Shown here piece after piece: positions 2,519-26,746 of a DNA stretch of 64,000 nt. Under the pieces are notes generated by a model. That model was not told the DNA's origin. It worked only from the letters and a program-made list of their open reading frames with translations, and did not search any database. Origin of the DNA: Agarophyton chilense (Eukaryota > Rhodophyta > Florideophyceae > Gracilariales > Gracilariaceae); the NCBI GenBank assembly GCA_030374765.1, contig JARGXX010000100.1, forward strand, positions 1,550,001-1,614,000, written 5' to 3'. The stretch's first letter is position 1, and each line of letters opens with the position of its first letter. Position numbers and translations under genes: made by a program.

Positions 2519-5500
2519 GGTGACACAGACGAAGAACTGCAAACTCCGTCTGAAGATCAATTGCAAACGGCAAAGGATCCAGAGAGCCTGGTCGATGAGC
2601 TAGACTTAGCACATGTGTCGGAACACTACAGAACGAAGATCAGGTCTATGCTGAAGAAGTATACATCCATGTGGAGTGGAAAACTAGGAGAGATCTCCGC
2701 TACGGAACACCACATTGATTTGGTCTCAGGGTCACGACCCATCTCCCAACCACCCTACAGAGCGGGACCGCAAACTCGCCAAATCGAGGAGGAGAATGTC
2801 AGCAGAATGCTGGGAGAAGGAGTAATCGAAGCAGCTCAATCTGCTTGGGCCTCACCAGTAGTGCTGGTTTCGAAACCTGATGGTTCTTTACGATTCTGTA
2901 TCGACTATCGAAAACTGAACGCAGTTACAGTTCGAGATACATACCCGTTGCCTCGAATGGACTAATGTATTGACAGCTTAGGAGAACCGAGCGTGTTCAC
3001 CACGTTGGACGCCCGCTCGGGCTATTGGCAGGTGCCTGTAGCGGAAGTAGACCCAGATAAAACCGCATTTGCGTGTCATGCCGGTCTCTACCGTTTCAAA
3101 AGGATGCCCTTTGGCTTAACGAATGCACCGGCTACTTTCCAGCGTACTCTGGAAATCTTGCTCTCAAGATACAAGTGGAAGACTTGTTTAGTCTATTTGG
3201 ACGATGTGATCATCTTTTCCCAGGATGTGGAAAGCCATTTACGGCATGTCGAGGAGATCTTCAAAGCACTACAGAGCGCAGGTATCACATTGATGTTCAA
3301 GAAATGCGAATGGTTCGCTGGCACCGTCCGATACTTAAAACATGTGATCAAGCCGAGAGAGCTTGCCATTCAAGAGGCACAAGCAGCGGCTCTCCGCGAA
3401 GTACAACCTCCGTCGACATAGAAGCAGTTGCGTTCTTTCCTCGGCTCTTGCAACGTCTACCGACGATTCGTGCCGCGATACTCGCATATAGCGGCACCGC
3501 TCAACGCAAAGCTGCGTAAAGGACAACCAGTACAGCTGGAACAATTCAGACAAGCTGAAGTGGAAGCGTTCGACACGCTGAAGACAAAGATTATTACAGC
3601 CCTAGTCTTGGCGCTCTCCATCCCCAACCTGCCATACTCAGTGGATACTGACTCTAGCGAGTACCAAGTAGGGTGTGCCCTTTTTCAAACACACCCTGAT
3701 GGTGAACGCAAACCCATTGGTTACTGGTCAAGATCGCTGAACGCAGCTGAGAAGAAGAATTCAGTTTCAGAAAAGGAATGCATTGCAGTCGTTTGGGCTC
3801 TAACCACATTGCGACCGTATCTCCAAGGAGAACGTTTTACCGTCAACACGGATCATTCGTCTCTACGATGGTTACTGTCCATTACAGACCCGTCTGGTCG
3901 TCTCACACGATGGCGCTTACGCCTTTCTGAATTCGATTTCGAAGTGAAGAATAAGAAGGGATTGGCCAATGTCCAATCTGATGCGCTATCGCGACTCAAA
4001 ACACTGGCCGAAACCCAAGGCGAAATCGATGAGGAGATACCTGGCTTCTACATGGAGACCCATTCACCATCTTTTGATGAAGAGGAACAAGAGACCCTTG
4101 ATGATTATTCGGATGTAGGCCCGTTCCTTGCATTAGCAGACAATGATTCTTCAATTCAACTCGAGCGAATCTCGTGCGCTGAGCTTTTAAATGAGCAACA
4201 CGCCAATACGTTTTGGGCGTCGATACGCTCTCGTCTTAACGGGGGGGGAGGAGCTCCCCTTTTCACTCGATTCAAGAGGAATACTGTTAAGACATGTCGA
4301 AAAGCATGATCAGGTCGTGATTCCACACGTCTTGAAGAGTCGAGTACTCCATCTGGCACACTACAGCAGGCTGTCTGGTCATCCAGGAGGAACGAAGTTG
4401 TTCATGACTTTAAGAAGAGATTTTACTGGCCTACTTTGGCAATGGACTGCCATGCTACAGTGAGGCTGTTTACAACATGTGCGAAGAATCCCGTGAAGCT
4501 TTACAGGAAGCGGAAACCAATGACGTTATTCCAGGCGAAAGGGCCTTTACAATACGTCAGTATCGACATTCTAGGGGAATTGATTAGCTCAAGGCGAGGT
4601 TATCGCTACCTATTGGTAATCACCGACCGCTTCTCGAAGCTAGTGCGGACTGTGCCGCTGAAGCAGATAACCGCAGCCGTAATCGCACAGGCGTTTATCA
4701 AACACTGGGTATTTATATACGGACCACCAGAAGTTCTGTTATCAGATAATGGGAAGCAATTCGTTGCGAAGTTCTTTCAGAATGTTTGCCGAATTATGGG
4801 CATTCGAAACGTGTTTACCATGACCTATCATCCGCAATGCAACGGTCAGGTGGAGCGTTTCAATCGCACGCTGATATCAGCATTACGACACTACATCGCG
4901 GATAACCCGAAAGAATGGGACATGTTTACAGATACTCTGTGCTACGCGTACAATACGCAAGTGCATACCTCTACAAAGGCGGCACCGTTCGACCTCGTGC
5001 TCTCACGTAACCCTCCGGCTTTACCGGTTGCGCTCGACGACGAGACAGAATTGGACGCGCCGACCCCGGCTAAGTACCATCTGAAATGGAGGAATGACCT
5101 GAAGGCCAGAGCGGAAGAAGCCTCTAAGGAGTTATCAAAGACGCAAGCTCGCTATGAGCGAAACTATGACGCCAGAAGGCGAAGAGGAAATCCGGCAATC
5201 CGAGTAGGAGGTCACGTCTTCGTGCAAGTCGAAAGACCTGACAAACAGGAAGAATCTCGTCATAAGTTGTTGCCGATAGCGGCTGGACCCTTGAAAGTGG
5301 TGGACCTTGATGAAGACACAGTGGTCATCAAGACAGGTGTGGACGTTGAAAGTGTATCGCGCGATCCCGTTGAAGTCGCGCCTGGCCCGCAAGTGGAAGT
5401 CCAGGTATCTGGTAGAACTACGGAGGCAAGTGCGACGGAACGTCAAGTCAAAAGCCCAAGTGACTCTGGGGAGAGTGAAGCGCCACCAATGGCTCGAGCG

Positions 5501-6334
5501 GAGGAGAAAGCTCTTGATCTCCCACCGCCGGCGGTTGCGTACGCCAATCACGGACAGCTTCCAAAGAATCGGGATATGCCCCGTGGCACGCGCACACCCG
5601 TAAGAACAGAAATGGAACCTTAAAGCAGGAAAGATGCTTTGGACTTTGGTCCCAAGGACTTGGAAACGAGCGCACGCGAGAACGCGCCGTTGCCACTTCA
5701 GGCTGAACCGTCAGGTGAAGCCCCACTCGCTGTTCCGCCGATATCGGCTCCCATCTCTCGTGGGCAGGAAGAAGAAGAGGTAGCGCCTTCTGTCGTGGTG
5801 CAAGCACCATCGTCCACCGGACAGCGGTCAGAATCGGATAAACCGAAGGAAGTTCATCTACGAATGGAATTGAGAAGTAGCAATAAGTACGCTTCTATGG
5901 AACCTGGAAAAAAGGATAGCTCTTTCTCTGAGAAAGGTTCTCAAGGAATTATTACACTGCCCCTGCGGGCAGAACGACTGTTAGTCGACGAGCGAACGCT
6001 TAGCGACGCTGAGACTGCTAACACAAATACGCTTGGGTCACCCCTAAGGCATTTCGAACCTGTTAACAGGAGTCTCGCGCCAACAGCGAAAGCATTGGGA
6101 AACGCCCAGGAATATGTTATGGATCGCATACGTGAACATGGCGAGCATGAAGATACTAGAGAATTACTGTATCGATTCCGTTGATACGGTTTTCCTCCGG
6201 AAGCAAATACGTGGGAACCTATAGCTCATATCACCCTTTCGCAGCTCGTGCGATATCATCGACGCATGCGAGTACCACTCCCCAGGGAGATCGACTCCTC
6301 GATAGTCGGGCTCATGGGCACATCCCATTTCTAA
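2519..6334 (+). pseudogene. GyA pol: RT, RNase H, integrase, chromodomain
   Basis: RT has the YLDD catalytic box at about 3193-3204 and the RMPFGLTNAPATFQR block. RNase H follows (SVDTDSSEYQVG, NTDHSSLRW). Integrase has a zinc-binding HHCC part (about 4350-4490), the aspartates in SIDILG and SDNGKQF, and the glutamate in GQVERFNRT. A chromodomain closes the protein at about 6112-6290. Disruptions: TAA at 2963-2965 (GAA in the GyA2 copy), TAG at 3419-3421 (also in GyA2), an extra G in an eight-G run at 4241-4248, a compensating one-base loss near 4421, TAA at 5621-5623 and a Trp-to-TGA change at 6182-6184 in the chromodomain. Not functional as it stands, though catalytic residues are largely kept. 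Confidence 0.9.
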
Positions 6335-6635: not shown

Positions 6636-8318
6636 TCAAAGAGACGTGCGAGCACGCAGGTTCGCAAGAAGCTGTGCGCAATCACCCTCAACTTGGTCCA
6701 TGGGAAAGCCCGCGTCTAAGAGGAACTGCCTCTGCGGATCCAAGCCTGGATCTTCGACCGGCACTGCATTAGTTTGTTGGGTAAACCCATGACAGTACTC
6801 TTGAGCAACTCCCGCCGCTGCGGATGGATCGACGGAAGTGGCTACGCCTGCCAGCTCTGGCTCGTCCTCGTAACCGAGTTCAGCCTCAGCTCCCGGCGCT
6901 TCCTCATACGGTTCCTCTCTGTTCTGGGATGGAGTAGCATCGTACACGTATCCAGTAAGCTGGTTCGGTGGCATGTCACGCGGGTTCTCCCGAAGAAAGC
7001 GAGCCTGCTCGAAGGTCATCAACTGGCGCGTCCAGGGTTCGTACCAAACGAAATCTCCAGCACTTGCTGTTCGTCCAGGAGAATGGTCGTCGTGTCTTGC
7101 ACGGGTTCCGCGAGCGGATTGATCAGCAGGCACTCCAGACCAATCGACACTGTCGATCGAATCCACAAGATAAAGGATGTCGGCATGGTTCGCACGGGAT
7201 CCCAGGACAAGGGAAAGATCGAGTTCTCTCGCATAATTTCGCGCTGTGGGCGAAATGTACCAAACTCTAAAGGTATCATAAGCATCCAACAGGAGGAACA
7301 CGGCCATCTTGGCGATAAATTCGGTATATACCACCGTCCAATATTCCGAGAACGGGTCGTTAACCAACGCGGACCCGATGTAGGAGATCGCCGGTGGGAG
7401 CTCCACAGGGCAACGACGAGGACTCTCGATCGCCGCCCAATGCTCCGGAATACCGATGTAGCGCCCGAAGCGCGCGTTCCGCCGGACGCGGTCAATCTCG
7501 ATCATTTGATACGGCACAAAATAGCCTAAACTTGATCGAGTACGACGTTCCCAACGGGAATAATCCCAATAGGGAATGTCACGCTTTCGAACGAAGTGGA
7601 ACTCTGCACGGAGAAGAGGTTGCTGAAAGCAGAGAACTGCATCACGCACACCGCGCACACCGCGCCAACCGCTGACATCGACTTCAACGAGTGTCTCGAT
7701 ATACGAGTAACTTTCACCGTCAGTACGGGCTTTCCAGGTATCTAGTTTCCCGTCCTGCGGGAGGAGAACCGTACTGATGAATCGGTGAAGACGCTGGTAA
7801 ATCAGCTTGGTGAACCGCGTACGGGCTTCGGACAAGGTTTCCGTTGGATATCGCGCAACTGCGTTGTCTGGTAAAGCAATATGGCTCGCCCAGTCGTCGC
7901 TATAAATCGCGTGTTCCGGAATACAGTCAGGGAAGTACCCACCGTGTACATACTGTTGTATCAACGCGTCATCGCGGATAGCAACTGGATCAAACCAGGG
8001 CGCTTGCGCGAAAAGTTCACCGTTGTCGAGAGGATCTCGTCCATGAAAATGCGCAGGGTGCGGGTAGCTCGGCTGAGCACGACGAGAAGGAGCTCGAATC
8101 ACACCCTCAGAGGCGACGTAAGCCGCGTTCGGCATCGGAACCACGGTTGGCTGGGGTAACAGTACCGACCGGAATCCGGTGTACGGTGTGGGGAACGAAC
8201 GGTATGGACCGAGTTGAGCAGTAGGCTGCGACGCATAACCAGCGGTGTTGGACGGAGCCCCAGAAGCCACATCCTCAGAGGAGGCCTGAAACGGGTTGGA
8301 CCCGGCGTTCGGATCCAT
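6636..8318 (-). CDS. GyA antisense ORF, 560 aa, unknown function
   Basis: Complete ORF on the strand opposite to GyA pol, between pol and the 3' LTR. I recognise no known domain. Residues 1-95 are rich in P, S, Q and A; 100-460 hold the conserved core; the C-terminal third is acidic with a closing helix-like segment (RQFLLDAGF). Conserved blocks shared with the 550-aa GyC protein include APWF with RD and LIQ (about 106-121), RAEF (237-240), GYFVPYQ (265-271), GRY (285-287), VELPP (305-309), GS..ND (315-321) and AGDF (420-423). No signal peptide and no convincing transmembrane span, although 328-350 is fairly hydrophobic. The ATG lies 168 nt from the LTR edge, as in GyA2. Homology across diverged elements argues for a real protein; its function is unknown. 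It is not a usual env position because the strand is inverted. Confidence 0.8.
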   Translation of the reverse strand: MDPNAGSNPFQASSEDVASGAPSNTAGYASQPTAQLGPYRSFPTPYTGFRSVLLPQPTVVPMPNAAYVASEGVIRAPSRRAQPSYPHPAHFHGRDPLDNGELFAQAPWFDPVAIRDDALIQQYVHGGYFPDCIPEHAIYSDDWASHIALPDNAVARYPTETLSEARTRFTKLIYQRLHRFISTVLLPQDGKLDTWKARTDGESYSYIETLVEVDVSGWRGVRGVRDAVLCFQQPLLRAEFHFVRKRDIPYWDYSRWERRTRSSLGYFVPYQMIEIDRVRRNARFGRYIGIPEHWAAIESPRRCPVELPPAISYIGSALVNDPFSEYWTVVYTEFIAKMAVFLLLDAYDTFRVWYISPTARNYARELDLSLVLGSRANHADILYLVDSIDSVDWSGVPADQSARGTRARHDDHSPGRTASAGDFVWYEPWTRQLMTFEQARFLRENPRDMPPNQLTGYVYDATPSQNREEPYEEAPGAEAELGYEDEPELAGVATSVDPSAAAGVAQEYCHGFTQQTNAVPVEDPGLDPQRQFLLDAGFPMDQVEGDCAQLLANLRARTSL

Positions 8319-8476
8319 CGCGAGAGATCGAGCTGAAGAGCGGTGAGGAACAGAATACTGTTAAGAACTGTAAGAGTTGGTCGGGCGGCGAGGAATTCGT
8401 GATGACAATGAGTACACGGAACACCGGTCCGACTGCGTATAAACGCTTCTTGCGTCCCCCATGGTTCGCGCTTAAC

Positions 8477-8486
8477 GAGGGGGGTA
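8477..8486 (+). other. GyA polypurine tract
   Basis: GAGGGGGGTA directly before the 3' LTR, the expected plus-strand DNA primer. The same position in GyA2 (40927-40937) and GyC (18363-18374) also holds a G-run on the element's sense strand. Confidence 0.8.
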
Positions 8487-9153
8487 TGTAGTATTCTACT
8501 ATGTCGGGGAATCCGATAGGCGAGTTTTTCGCGAAGTTGCGGTTGGAACTCATAAGTGAGTGATATCATCAGCATTGTGATACGAAACGGCACACCGCGT
8601 AGGATGCCAGGAGGCAGGGTACAGTGTTGGGACACGTGGTATCACGAGTGGAGTGGCTTGCAACGGCGCATGTAGTGGCGATCCACGTGGCCGGTTTTGC
8701 TACCCTTTGTAGATGTAAGTCCATTAGGGACCGTATCCATACAGTGGTTTGGCTAAGTGGCTGACCACTGGGTATAATTTATATATTTATTTGGGCACTC
8801 ACCCTAACCTACAGTATATAGTGTACCAGAGGTGAGCGCCGAATCCAAGGAAAGGAGACAACATGGGCATCATGACTATTCTGTTCCTCGCTTAGGATTC
8901 CTTAACCGGAGATCCGGACCAGCTATAATAGATAGTCACTCCCCAACCACTTCACGATCCGTCTCGTACCTAGGTCCCATCAACGTTTTACAGTTTCCCT
9001 GTTCACCCTCGCTGGCGAGTAGTGGCCTTACACCCCACTTCCAGCTCGCTAGTGTTGTAGCTCTACCACCCTTTTTCCTTCGCCGCAAGCGACCCATCGG
9101 CAGTCCGAACGCTGTCGCAGGTGTCTGCTCTCTCCGTTAGAGCGGAGACTACA
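8487..9153 (+). repeat. GyA 3' LTR
   Basis: 667 bp, TGTAGTATTC...ACTACA with matching inverted ends. It aligns inverted with the GyA2 LTRs at 40260-40926 and 50232-50897. The next bases, GAATA (9154-9158), are the candidate target duplication; the other copy would lie left of the window. AT-rich TATA-like stretches occur near 8775-8820. Confidence 0.88.
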
Positions 9154-9710
9154 GAATATGATCAGTCGCTTCGGAAACGAGAGCTTGCTCGAGGCGCGCG
9201 AACAATTCACCCGTCTAGTATACCAGCGATTACGCTGCCTTATCGGCTCGGTGCCTCTCAATGAGTATTGGAAATTCGATATCTGGTGTGCCAGGACAAA
9301 TGGCGAGGCCTACTCGTATGTCGAGAACCTAGCGGCTTTGGATGTCCAAAGGTGGCACGGTGTTCGTGGAGTATCCAACGGGGCCCTCTGTTCCGACAGT
9401 TCTCAATTACGTGTGGAATTACGCTATCACCGCATACGGGATAATCCGTATTGGGAATTCCCCCGGTGGGAACGCCGTACCAGATCTCGACTGGGATACT
9501 TGGTTCCATACCAGATGCTCCAAGTGGACCGAATTGGGTATAAGTCGAACGTCGGGCGTTACGTGCCGATTCCTCAATACTGGCATGAAATCGAGAGTCC
9601 TCGTGGCTGTCCTGGAGAGCTTCCTTCTTTAATCACCTACGTAAGTTCCTTACTCGCAAATGATCCGTTTTCCGGTTATTTGGTAGTCGTCTACAGTACA
9701 TTCATCGTCT
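9154..9710 (+). pseudogene. GyB antisense ORF, internal fragment
   Basis: From 9158 the plus strand encodes about 180 aa homologous to residues about 155-335 of the GyA antisense ORF: RFTRL-type start, RWERRTRSRLGYLVPYQ, GRYVPIP, GELP, ANDPFSGY, VVYSTFI. The N-terminal part is cut off by the GyA insertion at 9153/9154. After about 9710 homology ends and the reading frame continues by chance into the reverse strand of the GyB pol linker, so the C-terminal third has been deleted. It is a third lineage of the antisense protein. Confidence 0.8.
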
Positions 9711-12700
9711 CATCCACCTCCGGAATTCTCAAAGCCAGTCGTCTGGTTTCCCTTTATATTTCCGGTCTTGCCGGTGCTTCGAACTTCGTTCTCGGTTTTT
9801 CCGGACCTTGCGGCGAAAACGCGACTTCAGTTGCCAATGTTCGTCTTAGGCTTGCCCCGTTGGGCTTCTTCTCTTCTTGGAACATGCTGCGCTCCTCAGG
9901 GAAAGTTACGCTCTTCAATCTTTTTCTCGGAATTGGCTTGCTGATCTCAGCTTCAGTTCCATCTTATTCTACGCCAAATGGTTATTCTGTTCTGTCATCA
10001 GGTCTCCCTGTAGAGTCTTCACGAATTCTGATACGTAAGGTTTCATCCTCAATTTCTTTCGCATCTACTGCGTGGTCTGAGGGAGAGACTGCAGAGTGCT
10101 GCGCGCTCACAATGCGGATCGCCGTGTCTCCTCTCACTGCTACAATGGGAGTTATGATTATGTCATGCGCGGATGTGCCGTGTGTCGCAGAACTGTTGTT
10201 CAGCACTTTAAGTCGTATCTCCGAACTCTTTTCACCACCTGGCAGTTTTGGAATTATTTAGCTCTGCGGCGGTATGTCCGCAAGCTCCTGCACAACTAGT
10301 GGCTGTGGTGGCTCCTGCACCCCAATATCTCCACATGTGGTTCCTCTCCCTGTACGTCAGCTTCTCGATCTGGCGCACCAACTACTCCATCGCGAGAAAT
10401 GCGCTCCACTTCAGTACTTCTCCGTATTACTACGGTATATTCGTCGAATTCGACAACTTCATGCAGTCCTATAGCGATCGATGCTAACTTATGACGGCGT
10501 TTCCGTTCCGTGTCCTCTCCGGTTTTCCGGCTATCTTTCCTTTCCACTCTCACGAAAACGTGTCCTCCAACTACGATATCCGGGAGTGCCCGTCGCATTG
10601 GCGCGTCGAATTTACGCTTGTAGCGCGTTTGGGCCTTTCCCATCTCTTTTGCAGCCTTTGTCGTGCGTTTGCGCAACTTATTCTTCCAGCGTAGGGGAAA
10701 CTGAGCCGGCGGCGGCATTGAATTTTCTTCGGTTCTGTCCGAATCTACCTTGATTGGCAAAGCCGCTGGTCGGCGCGATATTACCAATCCAAAGGGGGTT
10801 AGCTTCGTCGTCAAATGCACTTGCGTATTGTACGCGTAGCAAAGCATGTCTGTATACAGATCCCAGTCCTTTGGGTGTTCTCCGATGTAGTCCCGAATTG
10901 CGGCGAATAGTGTACGGTTGTACCGTTCCACGTGTTCGTTACATTACGGATGATACGTTGTGGTGAACACTTTCTTAACTCTAAGTATCCTGCATACATC
11001 TTGAAAGAAGCGTGCAACGAATCACTTTTCACTATCTAAGAGCAGAGTATCTGGTGGTCCGTAGTAATAAACCCAATGGTGAATAAACGCTCGTGCTATC
11101 ACGGAAGCAATAACCCGTTCCAGTGGAACAGTCTTAACCAGCTTAGAGAAGCGATCCGATATTATCAAAAGGTATCTGTTTCCCCGCTTCGAGCGCATTA
11201 ATTCCACAAGTATGTCAATATTGACATACTGTAGAGATGCAATTACTGGGAACACCTTCAATGTCTTCTTCTTTTTCCAGAGCTTCACTCTATTCCTCGC
11301 GCAAGTTAAGCACATCATAGCTATTGCGTGACAATCCATTGCCAAAGTTGGCCAATAAAAGTCTCTTCTGAAGGTTAGATACAGCTTCGTACCTCCTGGA
11401 TGACCAGACATTTGCGAATAATTTTCCAAATGCAGTACTCTGCTCTTGAGAGCGTATGGTTTCACGAATTGCTCATACGATTCAACAGTGCGTTCAATGA
11501 TTCCTCGATCGTCGAGAAGAAAAGGCAACACCTCTCTCCCATTAAGACGAGAGCGGTTTTCCGCGCAGAAGGCATCTAGGCTTGTTCACATAATAGCTCT
11601 TCAAGAGAGATTCGTTCGAGTTGATCTTCTGGATCAGTGTCCGTAGTCTGGGCTACCAGTAATTTCATTTGATGATCCTCTTCTTCTAGATGATCTTTTT
11701 CTCCTTCATTCGTTCTCGAATTTTCCGTTACCAAACATAGTATCTTATCATCGATGTCCAATTGGGTTTTTCCCAACGTCTCGAGTCGCAATGACGCGTC
11801 AGAGTGTATGTTTGAAGTTCCTTTTTGCAGTTTATTGTGAAATCAAATTCTGAAAGCTACAGACGCCATCGCATTAAGCGTCCCGACAGGTTGGTAATCG
11901 AAATGAGCCATCTGAGGCATGAATGATCGGTATTGACCGTAAAGCGAGCCCCCTATAGGTAAGGTTTGAGGGTCGTAAGAGCCCAAACCATAGCAAGGCG
12001 TTCCTTTTTTGACACAGAGTAGTTCTTTTCTGCCTGGTGCGGTGTTGTCGACCAGTATGCAATAGATTGTCGTATGCCGTCTTCGTGCGTTTGAAAAAGG
12101 GCACACCCTATCTGATAATCACTGTCGTCCGTGTCGACGGAGTAAAGAAGATCAGTTTTTGGAAGAGATAACATAGGAGCTGTGGTCAGCACGTGTTTTA
12201 GCTTTCCGACAGCTTCCGTTTCGGCTTCTCCAAATTCCTTCAAGGGAACGAGTTGTCCCTTCTTCAACAAAGCATCCAAAGGTGCAGCGATATGCGAATA
12301 GCGCAGCACAAATCGTCTGTACACGTTACAAAGTCCGAGAAAATATTTCAATTGCGTCTGCAATCGCGGATGTTTGAACTCACGAATCGCAGCGGTCTGA
12401 ACTTCTTCCATTCCCAGTTTCCCTGGCTTTATCTGTGTCACAGGTATTTCAATTGGTCTGTGAACCATTCACACTTCTTGGTCTTCAAGGTAATTCCAGC
12501 TTGCTGTAACTTCTCGAGGATTCCCTCAACATTCCCGAAATGGTCTTCTATATTCTTACTGAAAATGATGATGTCATTCAAGTAGACAAGAAATGTTTTC
12601 CACTTATACTGTGATAATATTAAATCTATAACACGCTGAAAAGTCGCAGAGGCGTTGGTCAAACCAAATGGCATTCGCTTACAGCGATACAGGTCTGCAT

Positions 12701-17498: not shown

Positions 17499-18362
17499 TG
17501 TAGGACAATGCCCACAAGGGGGAAACCCTACGAAGACGTCCGGATCTTCCTCTCACGAGGTAACCGGCGCGGTAGAGCTCTCCCAGGGATCGGCGCGCAA
17601 TGCCGGGTGTAAGCCGGAGCCGAACCGTCGCGACGGGCGCAGGGAGGCTGAAAGAAGCCGAGAATATCCGCCGAAGCGGTGCTTGCGTATCCTCTGAGGA
17701 GGCAAAACCCACGAGAGTGGCGAGCACGACAGGTGTCAGTGCGAGCCGCAAGAGCGGGAATTGCCCAATGAAGGGGAGGAAAAGGGAAGGAAAATGGGAA
17801 CGGAGGCAAGAGGGCGAGGTTGACCACGAGTCACAAGAGGGGACTCGGGAATAGCCGGCACTGCCGGGTGTAGCAAACCGTATACACGGGCGGAACCACG
17901 GAAGTGGGAATAGATACCCAACACACGAAGGCTGCTTGAACGTCCAAGGGGGCTGGGAAGCCGGGCACCACGGGAAATCCCTCCGTAAGGAGTTGTATAT
18001 CCGCGCAGGCGGATCGACCCAGAGCCAAGATCTGGAAGACCAAGATCACCCTTGTTGGGGAGACTTTACTGGACCGGCGGCCGCGAGGCCGGCGGCCTAA
18101 GTACTGTAGTCACCGTAGAATAGAATAAATAAAGTCTATCCTAAATAGCTAAATGTCCGTCTAACAAAAGGGGCCAATCTGGCGGCCACGTGTCGCGCGG
18201 GCGCTACGGCCACGTGTATGGCACCCGGTCCCGCCGGTGCATTACCGGCGTTCCGGCCATCGCCGTGAAACGGATTACTCCTACTCATAACGAGGTTGCA
18301 CGCCGGAGGCTCCGGAAAAAACTTAAGTCCCCAAAAACCTCCCTGGAGGACGTTGCTCTTCA
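17499..18362 (-). repeat. GyC 3' LTR
   Basis: 864 bp, on the plus strand TGTAGGACAATG...GCTCTTCA, nearly identical to 26747-27610. It lies next to the polypurine tract at 18363-18374. Confidence 0.95.
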
Positions 18363-18374
18363 TATCCCCCCCTT
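18363..18374 (-). other. GyC polypurine tract
   Basis: On the minus strand AAGGGGGGGATA directly precedes the 3' LTR (TGAAGAGC). Confidence 0.85.
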
Positions 18375-18531
18375 AAGACAGGGCGAACACCTCGAAGAGG
18401 AAGTCGGCATGGCAGCTCGTCATGATAAGAGCGCGTCCGACACCGGGTCTCCGGAAACCAACACACCCTGACCAAGGATCCCACGCACGCTCTTCGCATC
18501 CGATTCCAACAACAGCACACCAACACGCACC

Positions 18532-20184
18532 ATGTCCAACCCCGACCGTCATTACACATCTGCGACTCCCGCCCTTGGCGGTTCCACCGGCTTCCGGTCC
18601 GCGCCCCACCCTGGGGATGTTACCAACCTCGCGTACGAAGACCGCCGTATTGGCGCCCGCTTTCCCGGACAGGCGGACCCACCGCAGTGGCCGACCTACG
18701 ACGCCCTTGTGGGTGCAAATCCGAGAACTCGGCATGGATCCGCGAGAATGCGGTATGCGCCTTGGTTTCACCCATTGCCTGTCCGCGACGAGGATTTGAT
18801 CCAATCCTACACCGATAATTCGGAGATGCTCCCGGGCGACCTGCCCGGCGTGGTGACCCTGTCCTGGGATTGGCGTAATCGTATCGCCATCCCGGTACAC
18901 CACATACTCCGCCGACGCGGTGAATCCTCTGCGGAGGCTCAAGCCGCACTTGTGCGGATCACTTATCTCAAGCACCATCGGGCGCCTTTCGAGTTCCCGA
19001 TACCGCCAGAGGTCGAATTCGACGTCCACCTTTACCGCACTCGCGGGGAAATGTCGTACTGTGACCGTCTTAACGGATTGGAAACCCTCGCTTGGAGGGG
19101 CACACCGATCGCTAGGCAAGAAGCCCTTTGCTGGGCACAACCGATTCTTCGGGCAGAGTTCCGCTACCAACCGCGGCAGTCGCGCTCGAACTTCCTTCAG
19201 AACTTCATCCGCGATGAGCAGCGTTGGCGGGCCCGGACCGGGTATTTCGTACCGTACCAGAGCACGGAGATTGAGCGCATCGCGCCTGCTCACCGACATG
19301 GTCGGTACGTCAGTCTCCCAGACTGGTGGTCCTCCTTGGAGGCGTGCTGGGGTTGCTTCGTTGAGCTGCCCCCAGTATTCACCTATGTAGGGTCGTCGTT
19401 CTTGAACGATCCCCAGTCGGGGTGGTGGTCCGTTGTGGTAGGCGAATGGGCCGTCGGCACTGCGGCTTTTATCTTCGCTGAGGCGTACGACCAATACCGA
19501 TTGTGGTACGTGCCACGGCGTGTGCAGGCTGCGATCCGTCGTTTGGACATGCGCATCCCCCTCGGGGGCGAGGCGAACGAAGAAGAGATGCTGGGCCTCC
19601 TCGACTTTGTGGAGGGGGTCCAGTGGGATGAGGTCCCGCTGGAGAACTCCCAACGCATTCAACTGCGTCGCGGGTCTGGCCCCGGACTCGGGAGGAATAC
19701 AGCGCTAGCGGGGGATTTCCTCTACTTCGACCCCTGGGAGTACCACGAGATCAGCCGCGAGGAAGCGGAAGCCAACCGGCATGCGCCGCGTGAAGTCCCG
19801 GCCGACCACCCGCGAGGGTATGTCGACTCGAGCGACTATTACCGCGACTATGCGGATGGTGACCCGATGGTCGACAACGAACCGGAGGATCCGGGTTACG
19901 CTCCGATGGAGGATGACGAGTCCGGCCAGGCCGGTGAGGAGTCCGTTGAATACGGTGGTGCGGCTCCATCCGGGGCTGCTGATGCCGTGCGAACGGATTC
20001 CTATCCAACTCCATCGGTGTCGGGCCCGCCCGCAACTGCCGCTGGCGCGGAGCTGGGCGAGGTCCTCGCGCGCTTCCTTCAGGAGGTGGGGCTTCGCCCT
20101 TCCGAGATCTCGGGTGATGTGGCTGCCATGCGGGATGCCTTAGCCAACCGCCTGGGCGGGGGTCCGCCTCGTGCGGAGGAATGA
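18532..20184 (+). CDS. GyC antisense ORF, 550 aa, unknown function
   Basis: Complete ORF on the strand opposite to GyC gag and pol. Homologous to the GyA protein at 6636-8318: APWFHPLPVRDEDLIQSY (76-93), RAEFRY (207-212), TGYFVPYQ (236-243), GRYVSLP (257-263), CFVELPP (275-281), GSSFLNDPQSG (287-297), AYDQYRLWYVP (318-328) and ALAGDF further on. The N-terminus is low in complexity; the C-terminal 150 residues are acidic and end in a helix-like stretch (EVLARFLQEVG). No recognised domain, signal peptide or clear membrane span. The start CACCATGTCC has a good translation context, and the leader from the LTR edge is 169 nt. Pol of the same element converges on it, with stops 332 nt apart. Full openness despite divergence from the GyA copy suggests selection on the protein. 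Confidence 0.85.
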   Translation: MSNPDRHYTSATPALGGSTGFRSAPHPGDVTNLAYEDRRIGARFPGQADPPQWPTYDALVGANPRTRHGSARMRYAPWFHPLPVRDEDLIQSYTDNSEMLPGDLPGVVTLSWDWRNRIAIPVHHILRRRGESSAEAQAALVRITYLKHHRAPFEFPIPPEVEFDVHLYRTRGEMSYCDRLNGLETLAWRGTPIARQEALCWAQPILRAEFRYQPRQSRSNFLQNFIRDEQRWRARTGYFVPYQSTEIERIAPAHRHGRYVSLPDWWSSLEACWGCFVELPPVFTYVGSSFLNDPQSGWWSVVVGEWAVGTAAFIFAEAYDQYRLWYVPRRVQAAIRRLDMRIPLGGEANEEEMLGLLDFVEGVQWDEVPLENSQRIQLRRGSGPGLGRNTALAGDFLYFDPWEYHEISREEAEANRHAPREVPADHPRGYVDSSDYYRDYADGDPMVDNEPEDPGYAPMEDDESGQAGEESVEYGGAAPSGAADAVRTDSYPTPSVSGPPATAAGAELGEVLARFLQEVGLRPSEISGDVAAMRDALANRLGGGPPRAEE

Positions 20185-20516: not shown

Positions 20517-22544
20517 TTATCCCTCTTGGGCGTTTACCAGTGTGGCTGGGAGTGCGGTCCCCGCAAGGCGGTGGTATCGCATTACCGCAGAGCGCGGGAG
20601 GTGCTCGATGGGCTCCGGGGTGTCCCACTCCGGCCCGTATCCGTACCAGCGGGTCCGGTACTGGAGCACCCCGTGCCCATCGTAGGTATGTCCGACGATT
20701 CGGTCGAGGACGTACTCCTGCACGTAAACTTGCCGGCTTTGCCGGGTGGTGGTGACCCGAGCCTCAGCGCTGCGTGGTGCTGGGCTCGTCGTCGCCTGTT
20801 CCGGGTCACCCGGTTTGTCATTTCGCTCTGCGGATGTTGCCGGGTTGCCGGGGCTGCCGTACCGCTTCGCGAAAGTTGCCGGCGCGGCCGGGTTGTGTTT
20901 CCGCTGGGCGGTAGGGGCTTCCCTGAAGTCCGCTCTTACCGCGAGTTTGCGGGGGTCCTTCCGTCTTGGTGACGGTTCGCCGGAGGCCTCCGCTTGATTT
21001 GCGGCATGCGGCGTTCCCATTGGTGGGCAGTTTCCGCCGTGCAGTGCGCCGCGGGCGGTGAGTGGTTCACCGTGCCGGCGGTCCGCCTCCGCGGGGTGGC
21101 TGTCAGCCAATGACCGGGATGCCGGGTGCCCATTGGTCCGATCTCCCGCCCGGGTCACGTGACCTTGAGGACGGGTGGTCCGGCCGTCGCGGACGGTTGG
21201 CTCCCATTGTTCGGCAAGGGAGGCGGTTTTCGACTTGTCGTTGCGCCCCTTTTCTGCCATGGGGTTCGTACCGTTCTCAACGGAGTGGCTCGCTAGACCT
21301 GCTTGCGCAGCGTCCGCCGGAGTACCGGTATCGACCGAAACGCTCGGTGTGCGATTGCGAATGTGCGGGGAGCCCTTAGTTGCTTCCACGCGATGCGGAG
21401 CGTCCGTAGGGTCTCGCCTCCCGGCTTCGGGTCTTCGAGCGCCTCGGTTCCCCTTTCGGGGTTGCGTGGCGGTCGGATTGACCGCCGCGTCCCGCGGGAG
21501 CGGAGTAACGTCCGGCGACGATGCTGGATGCCCGCTCGGGGGCCTTGCCCGGGGTGTCCGGTTAAACTTCCGTTGCGACGGCGATGCTTCCGCGATTGAG
21601 CGGGTCCCCTCTCCCTCCTTAGACGGAGCGACGGGTGATGGTGGGCTAACCGCATGGCGGGTATAAATACCGCTGCGCGGCGCCCGTAAGGGTAGCTGGC
21701 CGCGAGGGCCAGGTGTTTCCGGCATTGCCGGTGGTTCCGATAAAGTCGGTATATCGGAGAGACCCCGTGAGGGGTGCGGTACCACGGCGGGGCTTCTAAG
21801 CCATGGTGCCACGGGTACGGGTGTTTCATTCTCGCGCGCTGCGAGTAGCTCATCCATTTCCATGGTGTGTTCCCCGGTTTCGGGCCAATCAGACTCCGTC
21901 GGTGTTTCCCCTTCCAAGGTAAAGCACGGGATCTCGTCGACCTCCGGGTCGGCAAGTGCTTCACCTGTCGTAGGTAATCGAGAGAGGGCGTCTGCTTGGG
22001 TGTTCTGGACACCCTTTTTGTAGACGACCTCGAAGTCGAATGCCGCTAAGCGGAGGCGCCACCGCATTAAGCGACCAGAAGGATCTGCGATGTTCAGCAG
22101 CCACCTCAGCGAGGCATGGTCCGTGTACACGGTGAAATGAACGCCCATGAGGTATGGGCGCAGAGTGGATAGCGCCCAGACCACTGCGAGGCACTCCTTC
22201 TCGGAGACCGAGTAGTTGCGCTCGTGGACGTTCAGCGTGCGGGACCAATAGCCAATTGGTTTTCGTTCCCCCTCGGGGGTGGTTTGGAACAGTGCGCAGC
22301 CCACCTGGTGGTCGCTGGCGTCGGTGTCGATGGAGTAGGGAAGCCCAGGTTTGGGCAAGGATAGGATGGGAGCTGTTGTAACTGCCTTAATCAAGGAGCG
22401 AAAAGATTCCGACTGATCGGTGGTAAATGGGACAAGCTTCGGTGGCTGGCCCTTCCGCAGTAGCGCGTTTAGCGGAGCGGCGATATCCGAGAAACTCGGT
22501 ATAAACCGTCGATAGACGTTGACCAGACCTAAAAAGGATCGGAG
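20517..22544 (-). CDS. GyC RNase H, linker and chromodomain without integrase
   Basis: Open reading frame continuing in the same frame after the TAG at 22545-22547. The first part is the RT-connection/RNase H (LRSFLGLVNVYRRF, SIDTDASDHQVGCALF, YTDHASLRW, ADALSRLP). About 370 residues rich in P, R, T, S and A follow, then a C-terminal chromodomain (QEYVLDRIVG, RWYGYGPEWDT, EPIEHLPRSAV) at about 20530-20700. The HHCC and D-D-E integrase blocks that separate RNase H and chromodomain in GyA are absent, with no trace in this frame. An isolated start would be Met at 22394, inside the RNase H region, so expression probably depends on reading through the TAG. Alternatively this is a deletion product mobilised in trans. 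Confidence 0.85.
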   Translation of the reverse strand, partial: LRSFLGLVNVYRRFIPSFSDIAAPLNALLRKGQPPKLVPFTTDQSESFRSLIKAVTTAPILSLPKPGLPYSIDTDASDHQVGCALFQTTPEGERKPIGYWSRTLNVHERNYSVSEKECLAVVWALSTLRPYLMGVHFTVYTDHASLRWLLNIADPSGRLMRWRLRLAAFDFEVVYKKGVQNTQADALSRLPTTGEALADPEVDEIPCFTLEGETPTESDWPETGEHTMEMDELLAARENETPVPVAPWLRSPAVVPHPSRGLSDIPTLSEPPAMPETPGPRGQLPLRAPRSGIYTRHAVSPPSPVAPSKEGEGTRSIAEASPSQRKFNRTPRARPPSGHPASSPDVTPLPRDAAVNPTATQPRKGNRGARRPEAGRRDPTDAPHRVEATKGSPHIRNRTPSVSVDTGTPADAAQAGLASHSVENGTNPMAEKGRNDKSKTASLAEQWEPTVRDGRTTRPQGHVTRAGDRTNGHPASRSLADSHPAEADRRHGEPLTARGALHGGNCPPMGTPHAANQAEASGEPSPRRKDPRKLAVRADFREAPTAQRKHNPAAPATFAKRYGSPGNPATSAERNDKPGDPEQATTSPAPRSAEARVTTTRQSRQVYVQEYVLDRIVGHTYDGHGVLQYRTRWYGYGPEWDTPEPIEHLPRSAVMRYHRLAGTALPATLVNAQEG

Positions 22545-24476
22545 CTATGTTTGAGAACGGGGCTCCTTCGCCTCGCAGAGGGACTTGATACGAACTTGTT
22601 CGATCATTAACCGTCCTGGATGGATGACGTGCCCGAGATACTTCACCGTGTCGGTGAAGAACTCGCACTTCCTCAACTTGAGGGTTATTCCTGCGTCTCG
22701 CAGTACGGTCATCACGTCCCGCACGTGGGTCAGGTGATCGTCCAGGTTTCTGGAAAAGACAATGATGTCGTCCAAGTAGACAAGGCACGTGCGCCACTTG
22801 AAACGCGACATCAGTATGTCTGTTGCCCTTTGAAAGGTGGCTGGTGCATTGGTTAAACCAAACGGCATCCGCTTGAAGCGGTAGGAACCCGAGTGGCAAA
22901 GAAACGCGGTTTTGTCTCGGTCCTCTTCCCGGACTGGGACTTGCCAGTAGCCACAGTTAGAATCCAGAGCCGTAAACACGGTAGCGTCCCCGAGCGAGTC
23001 TATACACTCGTCCATGCGCGGAATTGGGTAGGTGTCCCTCACGGTGACGGCATTGAGGCGGCGGTAGTCAACGCAAAACCGCCACGTGCCGTCGGCCTTG
23101 AGGGCCAGCACCACCGGTGAAGCCCAAGGCAATTGGGCGGGCTCGATGACTCCAGCACGGAGCATCTTGTCCACCTGAAATTCTTCCTCCTCCCGAGCTT
23201 TCGGTCCCGCCCTGTAAGGGGGTTGTGCAACCGGACGTGCGTCCGATAGCAAGTCTATCCGATGTTCGGTTGTATTGATCTCACCCAGTGAGCCGTCCCA
23301 CATTGTGGTAAACTCGCGTAGCATTCCGCGTAAGCGGTCCCGGTGTGAGACCGGTACATGACTCAGGTCCAGGTCCTCGAGGGCCTTGATCGGGTCTATC
23401 TTATCGTAGCTCGTAGGCTGTGCCCTGGTGTCAGGTGTGGGAACCGACGAGGTCGGAAATGCATCCGTCTTGACGGTTTTATCGAGCGCCAACTGCTGTG
23501 CCTCCCCGGAGGTTTCTCCACCGGATACCGGAAGACCATCCTCGGTAGAGGGAGTTATTCCGAGTACTTTGGCAGCCGTCACCTTTGTAGGGAGCATCGC
23601 GAGCGGGTGCAGCATCACAGACCCAATGACTTGGTTCTTTGCCAGCGTCTCGGGAGCCTTTCCCAGATTGGCAACCAACACCCTGAAAGGGGAATTCGGC
23701 GTGACTTGCACGATTCCGTTCGCAACGGTTAACTGAAATTTCTCGTACAACGAGGGCAAGGGCTGAACAACCTGAAGACCGTGTTGACGGGAATTGACTG
23801 AAACCATAACCTGGCTCTCCGGGGGTATGGTTACTGACGAAGCAACGCGTAGCTTCGTAGAATCCCGGTTCGTCGGTGTGGGTTCCTTCGCAGCAGATAG
23901 AGGAACGTGTTTCCTCGATGCCCGCTTCAGCGGTTGACGAACAATGGGGACGGTCGATCCGTCCTCAAGTTCCACCTGCTTAAGGCGTGGGCGGATGGCG
24001 TCAAAAAACCTGTCGCAGTAGTGACATCCCAGTATAACTGGCGCGGCCAGCGAGCGGCACACAATAAAAGTTAGTTTGACCACCATCCGCCCTAGCCTGA
24101 TGACCAGGTCGATCACACCAGCCGTTTTCAACGGGTTGTTATTGGCGTCCAACACGTCGGGTACCGTTTCAGAACGGATGATTGACCGCAATGGCGGGGG
24201 TAAAAGCGATTCCACAATAAAGTTCGGCCCAGCACCTGTATCCAAGACAGTGAGATGTCTCACCATAAACTGCGTGTGCAGACCAAGGTCAGCGTAAACC
24301 TTGTAGTTACGCTTGGCCATTACCAAGACTCTATCCGGGATCCGGTTATTTCTAATCCGTATCCACGGTCGACGCAACACACCGAGGTGTTTAGAGTCCG
24401 CGTCTGCGGTGTCCTTCGTTGTCAGGATTTTCACCGGGGAGCGAGGCATCGGCGCCTCGGGCGTCGTCAGCCTCAA
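22545..24476 (-). CDS. GyC protease-reverse transcriptase, 643 aa
   Basis: Aspartic protease with LDTGAG (catalytic Asp about residue 79) and the later VILGCHYCDRFF region, then RT with RFCVDYRRLNAV, YPIPRMDE, RMPFGLTNAPATFQR and the YLDD box at about 567-570. The frame differs from that of gag, whose stop lies 35 nt upstream, so pol needs a frameshift or re-initiation. The ORF ends with TAG directly before the RNase H connection domain, and the same frame stays open for a further 675 codons. Confidence 0.92.
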   Translation of the reverse strand: MRLTTPEAPMPRSPVKILTTKDTADADSKHLGVLRRPWIRIRNNRIPDRVLVMAKRNYKVYADLGLHTQFMVRHLTVLDTGAGPNFIVESLLPPPLRSIIRSETVPDVLDANNNPLKTAGVIDLVIRLGRMVVKLTFIVCRSLAAPVILGCHYCDRFFDAIRPRLKQVELEDGSTVPIVRQPLKRASRKHVPLSAAKEPTPTNRDSTKLRVASSVTIPPESQVMVSVNSRQHGLQVVQPLPSLYEKFQLTVANGIVQVTPNSPFRVLVANLGKAPETLAKNQVIGSVMLHPLAMLPTKVTAAKVLGITPSTEDGLPVSGGETSGEAQQLALDKTVKTDAFPTSSVPTPDTRAQPTSYDKIDPIKALEDLDLSHVPVSHRDRLRGMLREFTTMWDGSLGEINTTEHRIDLLSDARPVAQPPYRAGPKAREEEEFQVDKMLRAGVIEPAQLPWASPVVLALKADGTWRFCVDYRRLNAVTVRDTYPIPRMDECIDSLGDATVFTALDSNCGYWQVPVREEDRDKTAFLCHSGSYRFKRMPFGLTNAPATFQRATDILMSRFKWRTCLVYLDDIIVFSRNLDDHLTHVRDVMTVLRDAGITLKLRKCEFFTDTVKYLGHVIHPGRLMIEQVRIKSLCEAKEPRSQT

Positions 24477-24511
24477 CTCTGAGGACGCCTCTCCCGAAGG
24501 GGAGACTCCCT

Positions 24512-26632
24512 CTATTCTTTTCCCTGTACAGGGTCCTGGTCGGGCGAAGGCCCGACTTCCTCCGCAACGAGTGCATGATTCCGTTGCACGGTAGCTACCG
24601 CAGGAGCGGGTGGAGATCCACCAGCGTGGTTTGGCGCTGGTGCAGCGCGTGCCGGCTGAGCCGGTTTGTACCGAGAATTCGGAGTGTGAGCCAATGCGTT
24701 GGGGAAGTCCGTCTTCGCGCGGAGATATGACGTGAGTGGCACGGAGACCTTCTCCTGCGTGGAGAGGGCTTCGTAATTATCCACCACTCGTGCCATATCG
24801 CGTAGCGATAAAAGGCATTGCGGGGAGGTGTGCCCGCGCTCGAAGCACAAGTGGCACACCAACGTCACTCCCGCGTTTCGCGGTACGGCATTCCGAGCAT
24901 CGGTGTATCTTCCGGGTTCCCCGTTTCCAACCCATCCAGGGCGCTGAATTCGTGTCATTCCGTTTGAGTACGGCGTACGGGGGGCCGGAGTGCGGCGGTC
25001 ATTAAGATAGAAGACCTGCCCGTTCTCCGTGTCCCTTGCGGTTGAGTCAACCGAGCCATCCGTCGTAGACGGTAATTCCGTTGTCGGAATAGATAAACCA
25101 TCGTGGTGGATGACATTGATATTGTCATAACCCTGTTTGGGGATGCCATCCGTCGCAAATGACGGTGAAGAAGAGTTCGACTCGAGCAGCAATGTCTTAG
25201 CGGCCTTCGACCGGGTTCCCGGACTGCGTGCGCGTAGTGCATCTCCCTCTGCGCGGGCAAACTGTACGAGTTCAAGGTAGGTCACCTTCGGCTCTTGTTC
25301 CCTGTAACGGGCGACAAGAGTCTTGATGGCTGGATCCAAGCCATCAATGAACATCGTACAGCGTTCCCCAGCGGGGTATACATTACCATAACGGTGGAAA
25401 GCCTTATTCAGGCGTACCGAGTAATCGGTCTCGAGCTCGCCGGAGAGTTGTCGAGTGTCTCGCAAAGCGAGTATTGCCGCTTGTATCGCGGAGTTGGTTG
25501 CGTAGGAACGCAGGAGGTACTGCACGGCCTCGGGCCAGCAGGTCACACCTCCTTTGGAGGCTCGCGACGAGCCCCGAACCGACAAAAACTGATCTTCAGC
25601 GACACCCCGTAGAAAGTAGGGTAGCGCCACGTAGGCTTGCCCTTCGTTCATTCCGAGTATATCGGCTTCCGCGACAAAGCGGTGTAGGAAATCCAAGACC
25701 AGAATTGGATCATACCCAGTAAACGACTGGTTACGAAGTGAAAGCTGAATCCGCTTGATGCAGTCTTTCACATTACCCGTGTCACGTGGTGTCCGACCTA
25801 AAGAGGAATCTTCTAGCCGGTAATACTGGTAGGACAGGAGTGTCCTGTACAGAGAGTTGGTGGGCTTCAAGGGTTTGAGGCCCGGATGTCGCCGACCCTT
25901 GGGGCGCGACCGGATGGCCCCGTAGGTGGCAGAGGACCGCTTTGAGCGGGAAGAGCGCCCATAACGATCCTGTGGGTCATCGCTCACCGACGAATCGGAA
26001 CTCTCCGAGTCACTCGGTTTACCGTCCGACTCAGATGATGAGTCGGACGGGTGTCCGTGCTTACGGTTAGAATCCCGGTTCTTCCGGCTCTTCCGGTTCC
26101 GCGACTGGGTCTCTCGATGAGAGACAACCGGTCTAGCCGCGTTTGCCGGCGAGGTTAACGTCCTCTCGACCGACTCAAGTCGGCTTCGGAGACGCTCTAA
26201 GCGATTCTCCATACCTTCTGCGAAGGAAGACGGAGTGCCAGAACACTCGAGTAGTGTATTGACGTCCGACGGCAATACGCGGATATCCTCGGCTAACTCA
26301 CTCGTAGGGGGGTTAGCGAGGCTTCCTCGTAAAGAGGTGAATTCCCTCGAGAGGGTATTGTGAGCAGCCCGCAGGGAGCGGAGCTGCTCTTCCAAGCGTA
26401 CAACCCGTGCTTGGTCGACGAACCGCGGAGGCGGAGAAACCACCGTTGCGACGGTCGTTAACCCGGAATCGGGCTGCGGGTCTTCAGTGCCGGTGACCAG
26501 TATCTCCCGGGAAGCCGGTGTTGGAGCCAGGGCCTGTGGAACATCAGTGCCCCTGGCATCACCGCTCTGGCGGGAACGGCTGCGTGCTGCAGGAGGCTCC
26601 ATGCTAGGCGGTTTCCTTGGCATTGGCCACAC
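24512..26632 (-). CDS. GyC gag, 706 aa
   Basis: Structural capsid/nucleocapsid polyprotein. The N-terminus is basic and Pro/Ser rich, with a coiled-coil-like part around 75-150; a serine- and aspartate-rich hinge follows (SSSESDGKPSDSESSDSS), then the capsid-like core (FLHRFVAEADILGMNEGQAY, LLRSYATNSAIQAAILALRD) and a CCHC zinc knuckle CHLCFERGHTSPQC at residues 593-606. No stops. The first ATG is MWPMPRK; the internal MPRK matches the MPKTRSQ start of GyA2 gag, so translation may begin three codons later. Confidence 0.92.
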   Translation of the reverse strand: MWPMPRKPPSMEPPAARSRSRQSGDARGTDVPQALAPTPASREILVTGTEDPQPDSGLTTVATVVSPPPRFVDQARVVRLEEQLRSLRAAHNTLSREFTSLRGSLANPPTSELAEDIRVLPSDVNTLLECSGTPSSFAEGMENRLERLRSRLESVERTLTSPANAARPVVSHRETQSRNRKSRKNRDSNRKHGHPSDSSSESDGKPSDSESSDSSVSDDPQDRYGRSSRSKRSSATYGAIRSRPKGRRHPGLKPLKPTNSLYRTLLSYQYYRLEDSSLGRTPRDTGNVKDCIKRIQLSLRNQSFTGYDPILVLDFLHRFVAEADILGMNEGQAYVALPYFLRGVAEDQFLSVRGSSRASKGGVTCWPEAVQYLLRSYATNSAIQAAILALRDTRQLSGELETDYSVRLNKAFHRYGNVYPAGERCTMFIDGLDPAIKTLVARYREQEPKVTYLELVQFARAEGDALRARSPGTRSKAAKTLLLESNSSSPSFATDGIPKQGYDNINVIHHDGLSIPTTELPSTTDGSVDSTARDTENGQVFYLNDRRTPAPRTPYSNGMTRIQRPGWVGNGEPGRYTDARNAVPRNAGVTLVCHLCFERGHTSPQCLLSLRDMARVVDNYEALSTQEKVSVPLTSYLRAKTDFPNALAHTPNSRYKPAQPARAAPAPNHAGGSPPAPAVATVQRNHALVAEEVGPSPDQDPVQGKE

Positions 26633-26725
26633 CGTCTCGACGGAAGAATAGAAAGCAAACCGGTGAGACCGGAGAAAACCCGTGAAACGGAAAACAACCT
26701 CAGAGAGGACACAAGCGGTCTTGAC

Positions 26726-26743
26726 TTCTAAGTCGGGAGACCA
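26726..26743 (-). other. GyC tRNA primer binding site
   Basis: The plus strand is TTCTAAGTCGGGAGACCA, three bases from the 5' LTR. Read as a tRNA 3' end it gives CCA, A73, acceptor strand TCGGGAG and T-stem strand CTAAG. The implied C1-G72 pair is characteristic of eukaryotic tRNA-Tyr (inference). Confidence 0.82.
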
Positions 26744-26746
26744 ATT

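What the first reader, a model, noticed from the sequence alone, without database searches (positions are those of the whole stretch)
6636..8318. A conserved antisense protein gene in red-algal-type Ty3/gypsy elements
Homologous ORFs of about 550-560 aa lie opposite to gag-pol, between pol and the 3' LTR, in GyA (6636-8318, intact), GyC (18532-20184, intact), GyB (9154-9710), GyD (38950-40259 plus 50898-51199) and GyA2 (41095-42778). GyA and GyC have unalike LTRs and diverged pol, yet blocks such as GYFVPYQ, GRY, VELPP, ND and AGDF are kept and both frames are open. Antisense extra ORFs are known in some plant LTR elements (for example Grande in maize), but I know of no described family like this one. 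It could act in capsid, targeting, transport or host-defence interaction; the role is unknown.
Basis: partly seen in the sequence, partly recalled or inferred. Interest (0 to 1): 0.92.

Follow-up and report, generated by a model that had tools for sequence, protein, structure and literature searches.

The report
Antisense accessory gene in seaweed retrotransposons
Several old families of jumping elements in a red seaweed carry, on the opposite strand to their usual genes, a gene for the same previously unnamed protein, whose predicted shape matches no solved structure found here and whose job is unknown.

Summary
Confirmed and extended. The two open antisense frames are exact (GyA 560 aa, GyC 550 aa) and beyond chance (0 of 1000 simulations each). 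They are 35% identical (E 7e-77); 26 relatives were found in Agarophyton chilense, Gracilariopsis chorda and unnamed records. RNaseH and antisense ORF group four families alike. Among 27 young GyC copies pooled pN/pS is 0.47 in this frame and 1.03-1.24 in others, save one at 0.59 that shares its third positions. These copies were picked by ORF similarity; of four others, two are frameshifted and two give 0.68. A 27-row alignment folds confidently (pLDDT 89.9, pTM 0.89) and matches nothing in PDB or BFVD; AlphaFold DB was unavailable. [quoted passage not shown] Retand's TRP28 domain was not found here. Best reading: an old, selected accessory protein gene, expressed from near the 3' LTR, regulating its element. 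Expression and function are untested. Unexpectedly, GyC lacks a detectable integrase core yet keeps this gene.

The parts
6636..8318 (-). GyA antisense ORF, 560 aa, intact
18532..20184 (+). GyC antisense ORF, 550 aa, intact
18679..19836 (+). conserved core of the GyC protein (aa 50-435), modelled at pLDDT 89.9, pTM 0.89
20026..20181 (+). C-terminal tail of the GyC protein with the short conserved motif (predicted as two helices in the weaker GyA model, residues 526-557)
8487..9153 (+). GyA 3' LTR (TG...CA)
8474..8486 (+). GyA polypurine tract next to the 3' LTR; 168 bp lie between the antisense ATG and the LTR
2519..6184 (+). GyA pol remnant: RT, RNaseH, integrase core, with in-frame stops; similarity to GyA2 begins at 2519 and the 5' part was not found in the window
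17499..18362 (-). GyC 3' LTR, 98% identical to the 5' LTR
26747..27610 (-). GyC 5' LTR; 5-bp target duplication TTGAC at 17494-17498 and 27611-27615
18363..18377 (-). GyC polypurine tract; 169 bp lie between the antisense ATG and the LTR
24512..26800 (-). GyC gag-like ORF (Retrotrans_gag E 0.0028, under the cut-off)
22545..24776 (-). GyC reverse transcriptase ORF (RVT_1 E 3.7e-35)
20517..22544 (-). GyC RNaseH and C-terminal chromodomain-like ORF; no integrase core (rve) match
9152..9730 (+). GyB antisense ORF fragment, abutting the GyA 3' LTR
39291..40259 (+). GyD antisense ORF remnant, first part, cut by the GyA2 insertion
50898..51133 (+). GyD antisense ORF remnant, second part
41095..42778 (+). 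GyA2 antisense ORF, broken (three internal stops, early frame change)

Best explanation
This is a real accessory protein gene of a group of red-algal Ty3/gypsy elements, carried on the strand opposite to gag-pol between pol and the 3' LTR and inherited with the element for a long time. SHOWN: homologous open frames in several families, starting 168-169 bp (GyA, GyC) or about 270 bp (GyE) from the 3' LTR edge; frame-specific constraint in young copies; agreeing RNaseH and ORF groupings; and a confidently predicted globular core of about 380 residues, followed in 12 of 13 members by an acidic stretch and in many by a short C-terminal motif. INFERRED: it is transcribed in antisense from a promoter in or beside the 3' LTR; the protein acts on the element's own transcription, RNA or pre-integration complex, as has been proposed for the antisense proteins of Grande and Retand. 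Because the integrase-less GyC group keeps the gene under constraint, I expect it to favour the copy that encodes it (cis-preference). My estimate is 0.95 that it is a real selected protein gene, and 0.35 for the regulatory, cis-preferring role.
For: Open frames beyond chance. Homology GyA-GyC E 7e-77; 26 database relatives over three searches, each scoring only the roughly 8000 candidates that share most words, three of them Gracilariopsis chorda proteins. In the genome, all 78 scored GyA-type places (15 without stops) and all 79 scored GyC-type places (54 without stops) match over nearly the full length, out of 1813 and 1845 first-look candidates (stop-free rows counted by eye). GyC, 27 copies: pooled pN/pS 0.47 in the antisense frame and 1.03-1.24 in four of the five other frames; the fifth (0.59) shares the third positions. 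The overlapping sense ORF of GyC (443 codons stop to stop) lies in the frame with 1.03, so it looks spurious. With 29 GyC copies and 26 GyA copies, the N/S ratio relative to neutral is lower the more copies share a variant: GyC 0.77 (single), 0.53 (2-3), 0.44 (4+); GyA 0.91, 0.86, 0.48; two other frames of GyC give 0.80-1.63. Between families pN is 0.30-0.49 against pS 0.68-0.88. RNaseH identities group GyC with GyE (0.76) and GyA with GyB (0.66), other pairs between families 0.59-0.62; ORF identities group the same way. Start ATG kept in 25 of 27 GyC copies. Fold confidence pLDDT 89.9, pTM 0.89.
Against: No transcript or protein data. Copies used for the main GyC ratio were the top hits to the protein itself, which favours conserved ones. 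Of four copies chosen by the neighbouring spacer DNA and absent from the top 79, two are frameshifted; the two without indels are stop-free, and pooled against the 27 they give 0.68, between themselves 1.01. GyA copies as a whole give 0.72, hardly different from other frames (0.73-1.12), as expected for old dead copies but not in itself support. Shared-variant classes are small (29 sites for GyC at 4+, 18 for GyA). The constraint in integrase-less copies is modest (shared 39 N: 30 S, p 0.007; singletons not different from neutral), and three near-identical pairs among the 13 copies inflate 'shared'. Nothing links the protein to the nucleus or to nucleic acid: the core is near neutral in net charge (-11 to +6 in 13 members).
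Confidence: 0.6

Rival explanations
1. The protein is structural or enzymatic rather than regulatory: an extra particle, nucleic-acid-handling or transport protein made from the antisense transcript.
For: The core is a large folded domain (about 380 residues modelled) with 54 columns conserved in 90% or more of rows, more than a small regulatory peptide would need; 36-45 arginines and 12-16 tryptophans per core in the 13 members examined.
Against: No match in PDB or BFVD; no Cys or His among the 54 conserved columns, so no obvious metal or Cys/His active site.
Confidence: 0.25
2. The antisense RNA, not the protein, is what is kept: it forms double-stranded RNA with the genomic transcript and tunes copy number; the frame is a by-product.
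For: Antisense regulatory RNAs are known in retroelements (reviewed in PMC7264820, parts 1-2 of 3 read).
Against: Constraint is on the codon frame: unrelated frames have pN/pS of 1.03-1.24, third positions differ most between families, and the ORF holds no gaps in the 27 aligned copies (but 3 of 30 copies with a length change had been dropped before, and the neighbouring non-coding spacer and pol end hold no gaps either).
Confidence: 0.07
3. A passenger: a captured host or foreign gene carried along without benefit.
For: Most GyA copies listed are broken (63 of 78 with a stop); singletons are near neutral in both families.
Against: Present in several families diverged to 33-36% ORF identity, with the same grouping as RNaseH, and frame-constrained among young copies.
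Confidence: 0.05
4. The true coding strand is the sense one, and the antisense frame is a compositional shadow.
For: Sense ORFs of 251 and 429 aa from a start codon overlap the antisense ORFs in GyA and GyC.
Against: The sense ORF of GyC lies in the frame with pN/pS 1.03 and has no Pfam match; the antisense frame has 26 database relatives and a confident fold.
Confidence: 0.02

Closest known systems
Antisense additional ORFs between pol and 3' LTR (aORF-3R) of plant Ty3/gypsy elements: maize Grande gene23, rice RIRE2, Silene Retand
   Same: Same position and orientation, present in many copies and several related families, function unknown.
   Different: Host is a red alga. The Retand proteins carry TRP28 (PF04195), which gave no hit in 21 of the 28 P-numbered proteins scanned nor in GyE and the piece of L067 scanned, and in this genome gave one match below the cut-off. 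Grande and RIRE2 protein sequences were not compared. Literature: PMC7264820 (parts 1-2 of 3 read), PMC11963269 (passages seen).
HTLV-1 HBZ and other antisense genes of deltaretroviruses
   Same: Antisense protein gene with an antisense promoter in the 3' LTR, as described in the papers above; a functional analogy only.
   Different: Unrelated host and element; no direct comparison was made; the BFVD and PDB fold searches gave no match of note.
Accessory ORFs captured by bdelloid rotifer LTR elements (PMC5408684, listing and passages seen)
   Same: Family-specific extra ORFs in LTR elements.
   Different: The passages seen name ORF3 types env, DEDDy, GDSL, CC and TM, none of them this protein; I did not see an antisense ORF in those passages.

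Membership tests
Antisense aORF-3R class of LTR elements | ORF between pol and 3' LTR, antisense to gag-pol | tested here: met
   Positions of pol domains, ORF and LTR or PPT edge in GyA, GyC, GyA2 and L061; LTR side not seen for GyB and GyD
Antisense aORF-3R class of LTR elements | Present in most copies of a family and conserved as other element proteins are | tested here: inconclusive
   All 78 and 79 scored places are nearly full length, and the ORF gives pN/pS 0.47 against 0.73 for the 3' part of pol in the same 27 copies; but places were found by the ORF, so copies without it were not counted
Antisense aORF-3R class of LTR elements | Antisense transcript from an own or LTR-linked promoter | not testable with these tools
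   No expression data
Retand TRP28 proteins | Match to PF04195 (Transposase_28) | tested here: not met
   No PF04195 hit in 21 of 28 P-numbered proteins scanned; genome-wide best 20.2 bits against a cut-off of 26.2, at one place outside the window
Ty3/gypsy LTR elements (carriers) | LTRs with TG...CA, short target duplication, PPT, RT and RNaseH of retroelement type | tested here: met
   GyC: LTRs 98% alike, TTGAC duplication, PPT; RVT_1 E 3.7e-35 and RT_RNaseH E 3.5e-36. The Ty3/gypsy label rests on domain content and order, no RT tree was made
Ty3/gypsy chromoviruses | Integrase with C-terminal chromodomain | tested here: inconclusive
   Chromodomain-like hit in GyC under the cut-off (19.5 against 25.1 bits); rve integrase present in GyA (E 8.4e-14), no rve match in the GyC and GyE pol ORFs scanned

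The most novel reading that the evidence does not exclude
The core is a protein domain of a fold not seen before in solved structures, invented or captured once by red-algal Ty3/gypsy elements, kept as an antisense gene for as long as Agarophyton and Gracilariopsis have been apart, and so valuable in cis that even a young high-copy group that has lost the integrase core keeps it.
Probability: 0.3. Interest if true: 0.8.

Novelty: new variant of a known kind. Interest (0 to 1): 0.62.

Why it matters
Antisense accessory genes of LTR elements have been described without a known function (PMC7264820). Here is an independent case, outside land plants, with a family diverse enough (27 rows) to give a confident structural model. 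That makes concrete tests possible: the model suggests constructs, the young stop-free copies show where to look for transcripts, and the contrast between groups with and without an integrase core asks directly whether the protein acts in cis. If the fold is really new, mobile elements of red algae are a source of unseen domains.

Tried and rejected
TRP28 (PF04195) as the identity of the domain: rejected. E3_binding hits (4 of 15 members, best E 0.029) are under the cut-off; in the two whose place I saw (P0003, P0009) they lie in the middle of the core; treated as chance. Ish1 hits (P0009 E 0.092, L067 tail E 0.22) fall on the C-terminal motif and hint at a helix-extension-helix type of fold (my recall of that family), but are too weak to claim. 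The NCBIfam hit (E 0.013, 1 of 15 members) is far under its cut-off. The first structural model, from 15 rows and the whole GyA protein, was poor (pLDDT 48.8), and its fold searches mean nothing. One search was a first selection run in which minus-strand loci were not turned round; its figures are void and one search replaces it. Viral contigs and GTDB genomes gave no relative with the two peptide patterns used in each scan. Paper searches gave no description of this gene in red algae; subscription journals are mostly not held, so absence in print is not shown.

Full report
WHERE IT IS. The window is G000:C100:1550001-1614000 in a 79.8-Mb, 135-contig genome. One database protein of Agarophyton chilense (P0007) matches this genome at 100% over its first 363 residues, so the genome is that species or very near it; the published G. 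chilensis assembly is 76.07 Mb in 138 contigs (PMC10388701, passages seen), near but not the same.

THE OBSERVATION. GyC is a complete element on the minus strand: LTRs 17499-18362 and 26747-27610, 98% identical, with TG...CA ends, a 5-bp target duplication TTGAC, a polypurine tract and a primer-site-like stretch after the 5' LTR (the reading of these marks is from general knowledge). So the antisense gene moved as part of the element. By coordinates 168 bp (GyA) and 169 bp (GyC) lie between ATG and 3' LTR. In 21 of the 26 GyA loci examined a PPT-like edge was found at 155-172 bp (19 of the 21 at 166-167 by the script's measure), and none was recognised in the other 5. In a further family, GyE (locus L061), the homologous ATG (MSN...) is about 270 bp from the PPT-like edge, so the spacing is alike only in GyA and GyC.

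DISTRIBUTION. In this genome 78 GyA-type places (1813 candidates, 78 scored) and 79 GyC-type places (1845, 79 scored) match almost end to end; 15 and 54 of these have no stop inside (counted by eye; 4 of the 15 have the same score and look like copies of one another). These are lower bounds. Three protein searches gave 26 relatives in all (P0003-P0028): A. chilense (7), Gracilariopsis chorda (3: BWQ96_08668, BWQ96_03215, BWQ96_10156), and 16 from unnamed 'ena' or 'lgn' sources; each search scored only the roughly 8000 candidates sharing most words. In a tree of 27 core sequences the GyC protein groups with G. chorda P0019 and with P0014 (100/99), with GyE as the next branch (100/99), while the ten-row group that holds GyA (100/100) also holds a G. 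chorda protein. The two groups therefore look older than the split of the two genera, unless transferred. No relative was found in IMG/VR or in GTDB genomes with the patterns used.

SELECTION. From 60 loci I dropped 7 with length differences from the query (4 GyA, 3 GyC). Among 27 GyC copies, pooled pN/pS is 0.47 in the antisense frame; in the five other frames it is 1.11, 1.24, 1.03, 0.59 and 1.08, the 0.59 frame sharing third positions with the antisense frame. In the same copies the 3' part of pol gives 0.73, and the LTR read as codons 0.79-0.89. Pairwise divergence is lowest in the middle of the antisense ORF (0.019-0.023 per 150-nt bin), while its ends (up to 0.036) are like the flanks; there are no gaps in the ORF, nor in the neighbouring spacer and pol end. 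The 26 GyA copies give 0.72 against 0.73-1.12 in other frames, little signal, as expected for old copies. With two more GyC copies added (29), variants classed by how many copies share them give N/S relative to neutral of 0.77 (singletons), 0.53 (2-3) and 0.44 (4+) in GyC, and 0.91, 0.86 and 0.48 in GyA; two other frames of GyC give 1.20, 1.09, 1.63 and 1.34, 0.80, 1.34. The copies were chosen by similarity to the ORF itself. As a check I took 4 of the 14 places (of 40, compared by eye) that a search with the pol-ORF spacer found and the protein list lacked: two are frameshifted; the other two are stop-free and give 0.68 pooled against the 27, and 1.01 between themselves. These four lean the other way, since they come from outside the top list. 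The true figure for an unbiased sample remains to be measured. Between families pS is near saturation (0.68-0.88) while pN is 0.30-0.49, and third positions differ most.

COHERENCE WITH THE ELEMENT. RNaseH identity: GyC-GyE 0.76, GyA-GyB 0.66 (GyA2-GyB 0.65), all other pairs between families 0.59-0.62. Antisense ORF identity over the part GyB retains: GyC-GyE 0.60, GyA-GyB 0.52, others 0.37-0.42. With four families this is one agreeing split, not a full test, but it fits long common descent. The antisense ORF evolves faster than RNaseH.

AN UNEXPECTED CONTRAST. GyA has an integrase core (rve, E 8.4e-14), but the pol ORFs scanned of GyC and GyE do not. A 701-base query across this part of GyC is contiguous in 34 of 40 scored copies (33 over nearly all of it, one over 1-609); 6 of 40 match only its first 444 bases, at 98%. 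So the integrase-less form is a multi-copy group. In 13 such copies for which I held the ORF (assigned by position, by eye), pooled pN/pS is 0.53 in the antisense frame (other frames 0.70-1.19); shared variants are 39 N to 30 S (0.53 of neutral, p 0.007), singletons 79 to 36 (0.90, not different from neutral), and 1 stop variant of 185 is seen against 6.6 expected. Three of the pairs among these 13 are nearly identical. If the integrase loss is older than these copies, the gene is kept by elements that must borrow an integrase. A freely diffusing helper would not be kept by such elements; a cis-preferring protein would. This is inference, on small numbers, in a sample chosen by the ORF.

COMPARED WITH WHAT IS KNOWN. 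[quoted passage not shown] Grande's product is nuclear and its transcription is directed by a promoter upstream of it, and the roles are unknown (PMC7264820, parts 1-2 of 3 read). In Retand 97% of clusters carry TRP28 (PF04195) in antisense (PMC11963269, passages). The present gene is like these in place and orientation, but its protein does not belong to TRP28 by the test made. I therefore call it a new variant of a known kind. Ten paper searches found no description in red algae; two red-algal genome papers looked into hold no mention of LTR or gypsy in the main text (PMC12502185, PMC10388701; passages); the library lacks most subscription journals.

Noticed in passing
window 20517-22544 and L061 (G000:C22:1084500-1093500): GyC and GyE lack a detectable integrase core although RT and RNaseH are present (chromodomain-like hit in GyC); in GyC this form is contiguous in 34 of 40 scored copies.
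   Followed up: partly
window about 3419, 22545 and 45957: GyA, GyA2 and GyC each have an in-frame stop between RT and RNaseH, the same one in GyA and GyA2 and one close by in GyC. Whether this is decay or read-through was not examined.
   Followed up: no
window 40260-50897 and 9153: GyA2 is inserted inside the antisense ORF of GyD (flanks share CAAA), and the GyA 3' LTR abuts a GyB antisense ORF fragment, so two GyA-type elements sit in or against antisense ORFs of other elements.
   Followed up: partly
G000:C68:3138304-3158347 and C77:296012-306910: GyC-type ORFs repeat at 9.2-kb spacing (three in a row on C68, two on C77), as in tandem arrays sharing LTRs.
   Followed up: no
window 6184-6636: Between pol and the antisense stop of GyA lies a stretch with repeated AACTCGAGAAGCGAGAAGAA-like units.
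   Followed up: no
window 55599-57843, 60094-62705, 62703-63688: A different repeat family with inverted arms of 83-97% complementarity at the right end of the window.
   Followed up: no
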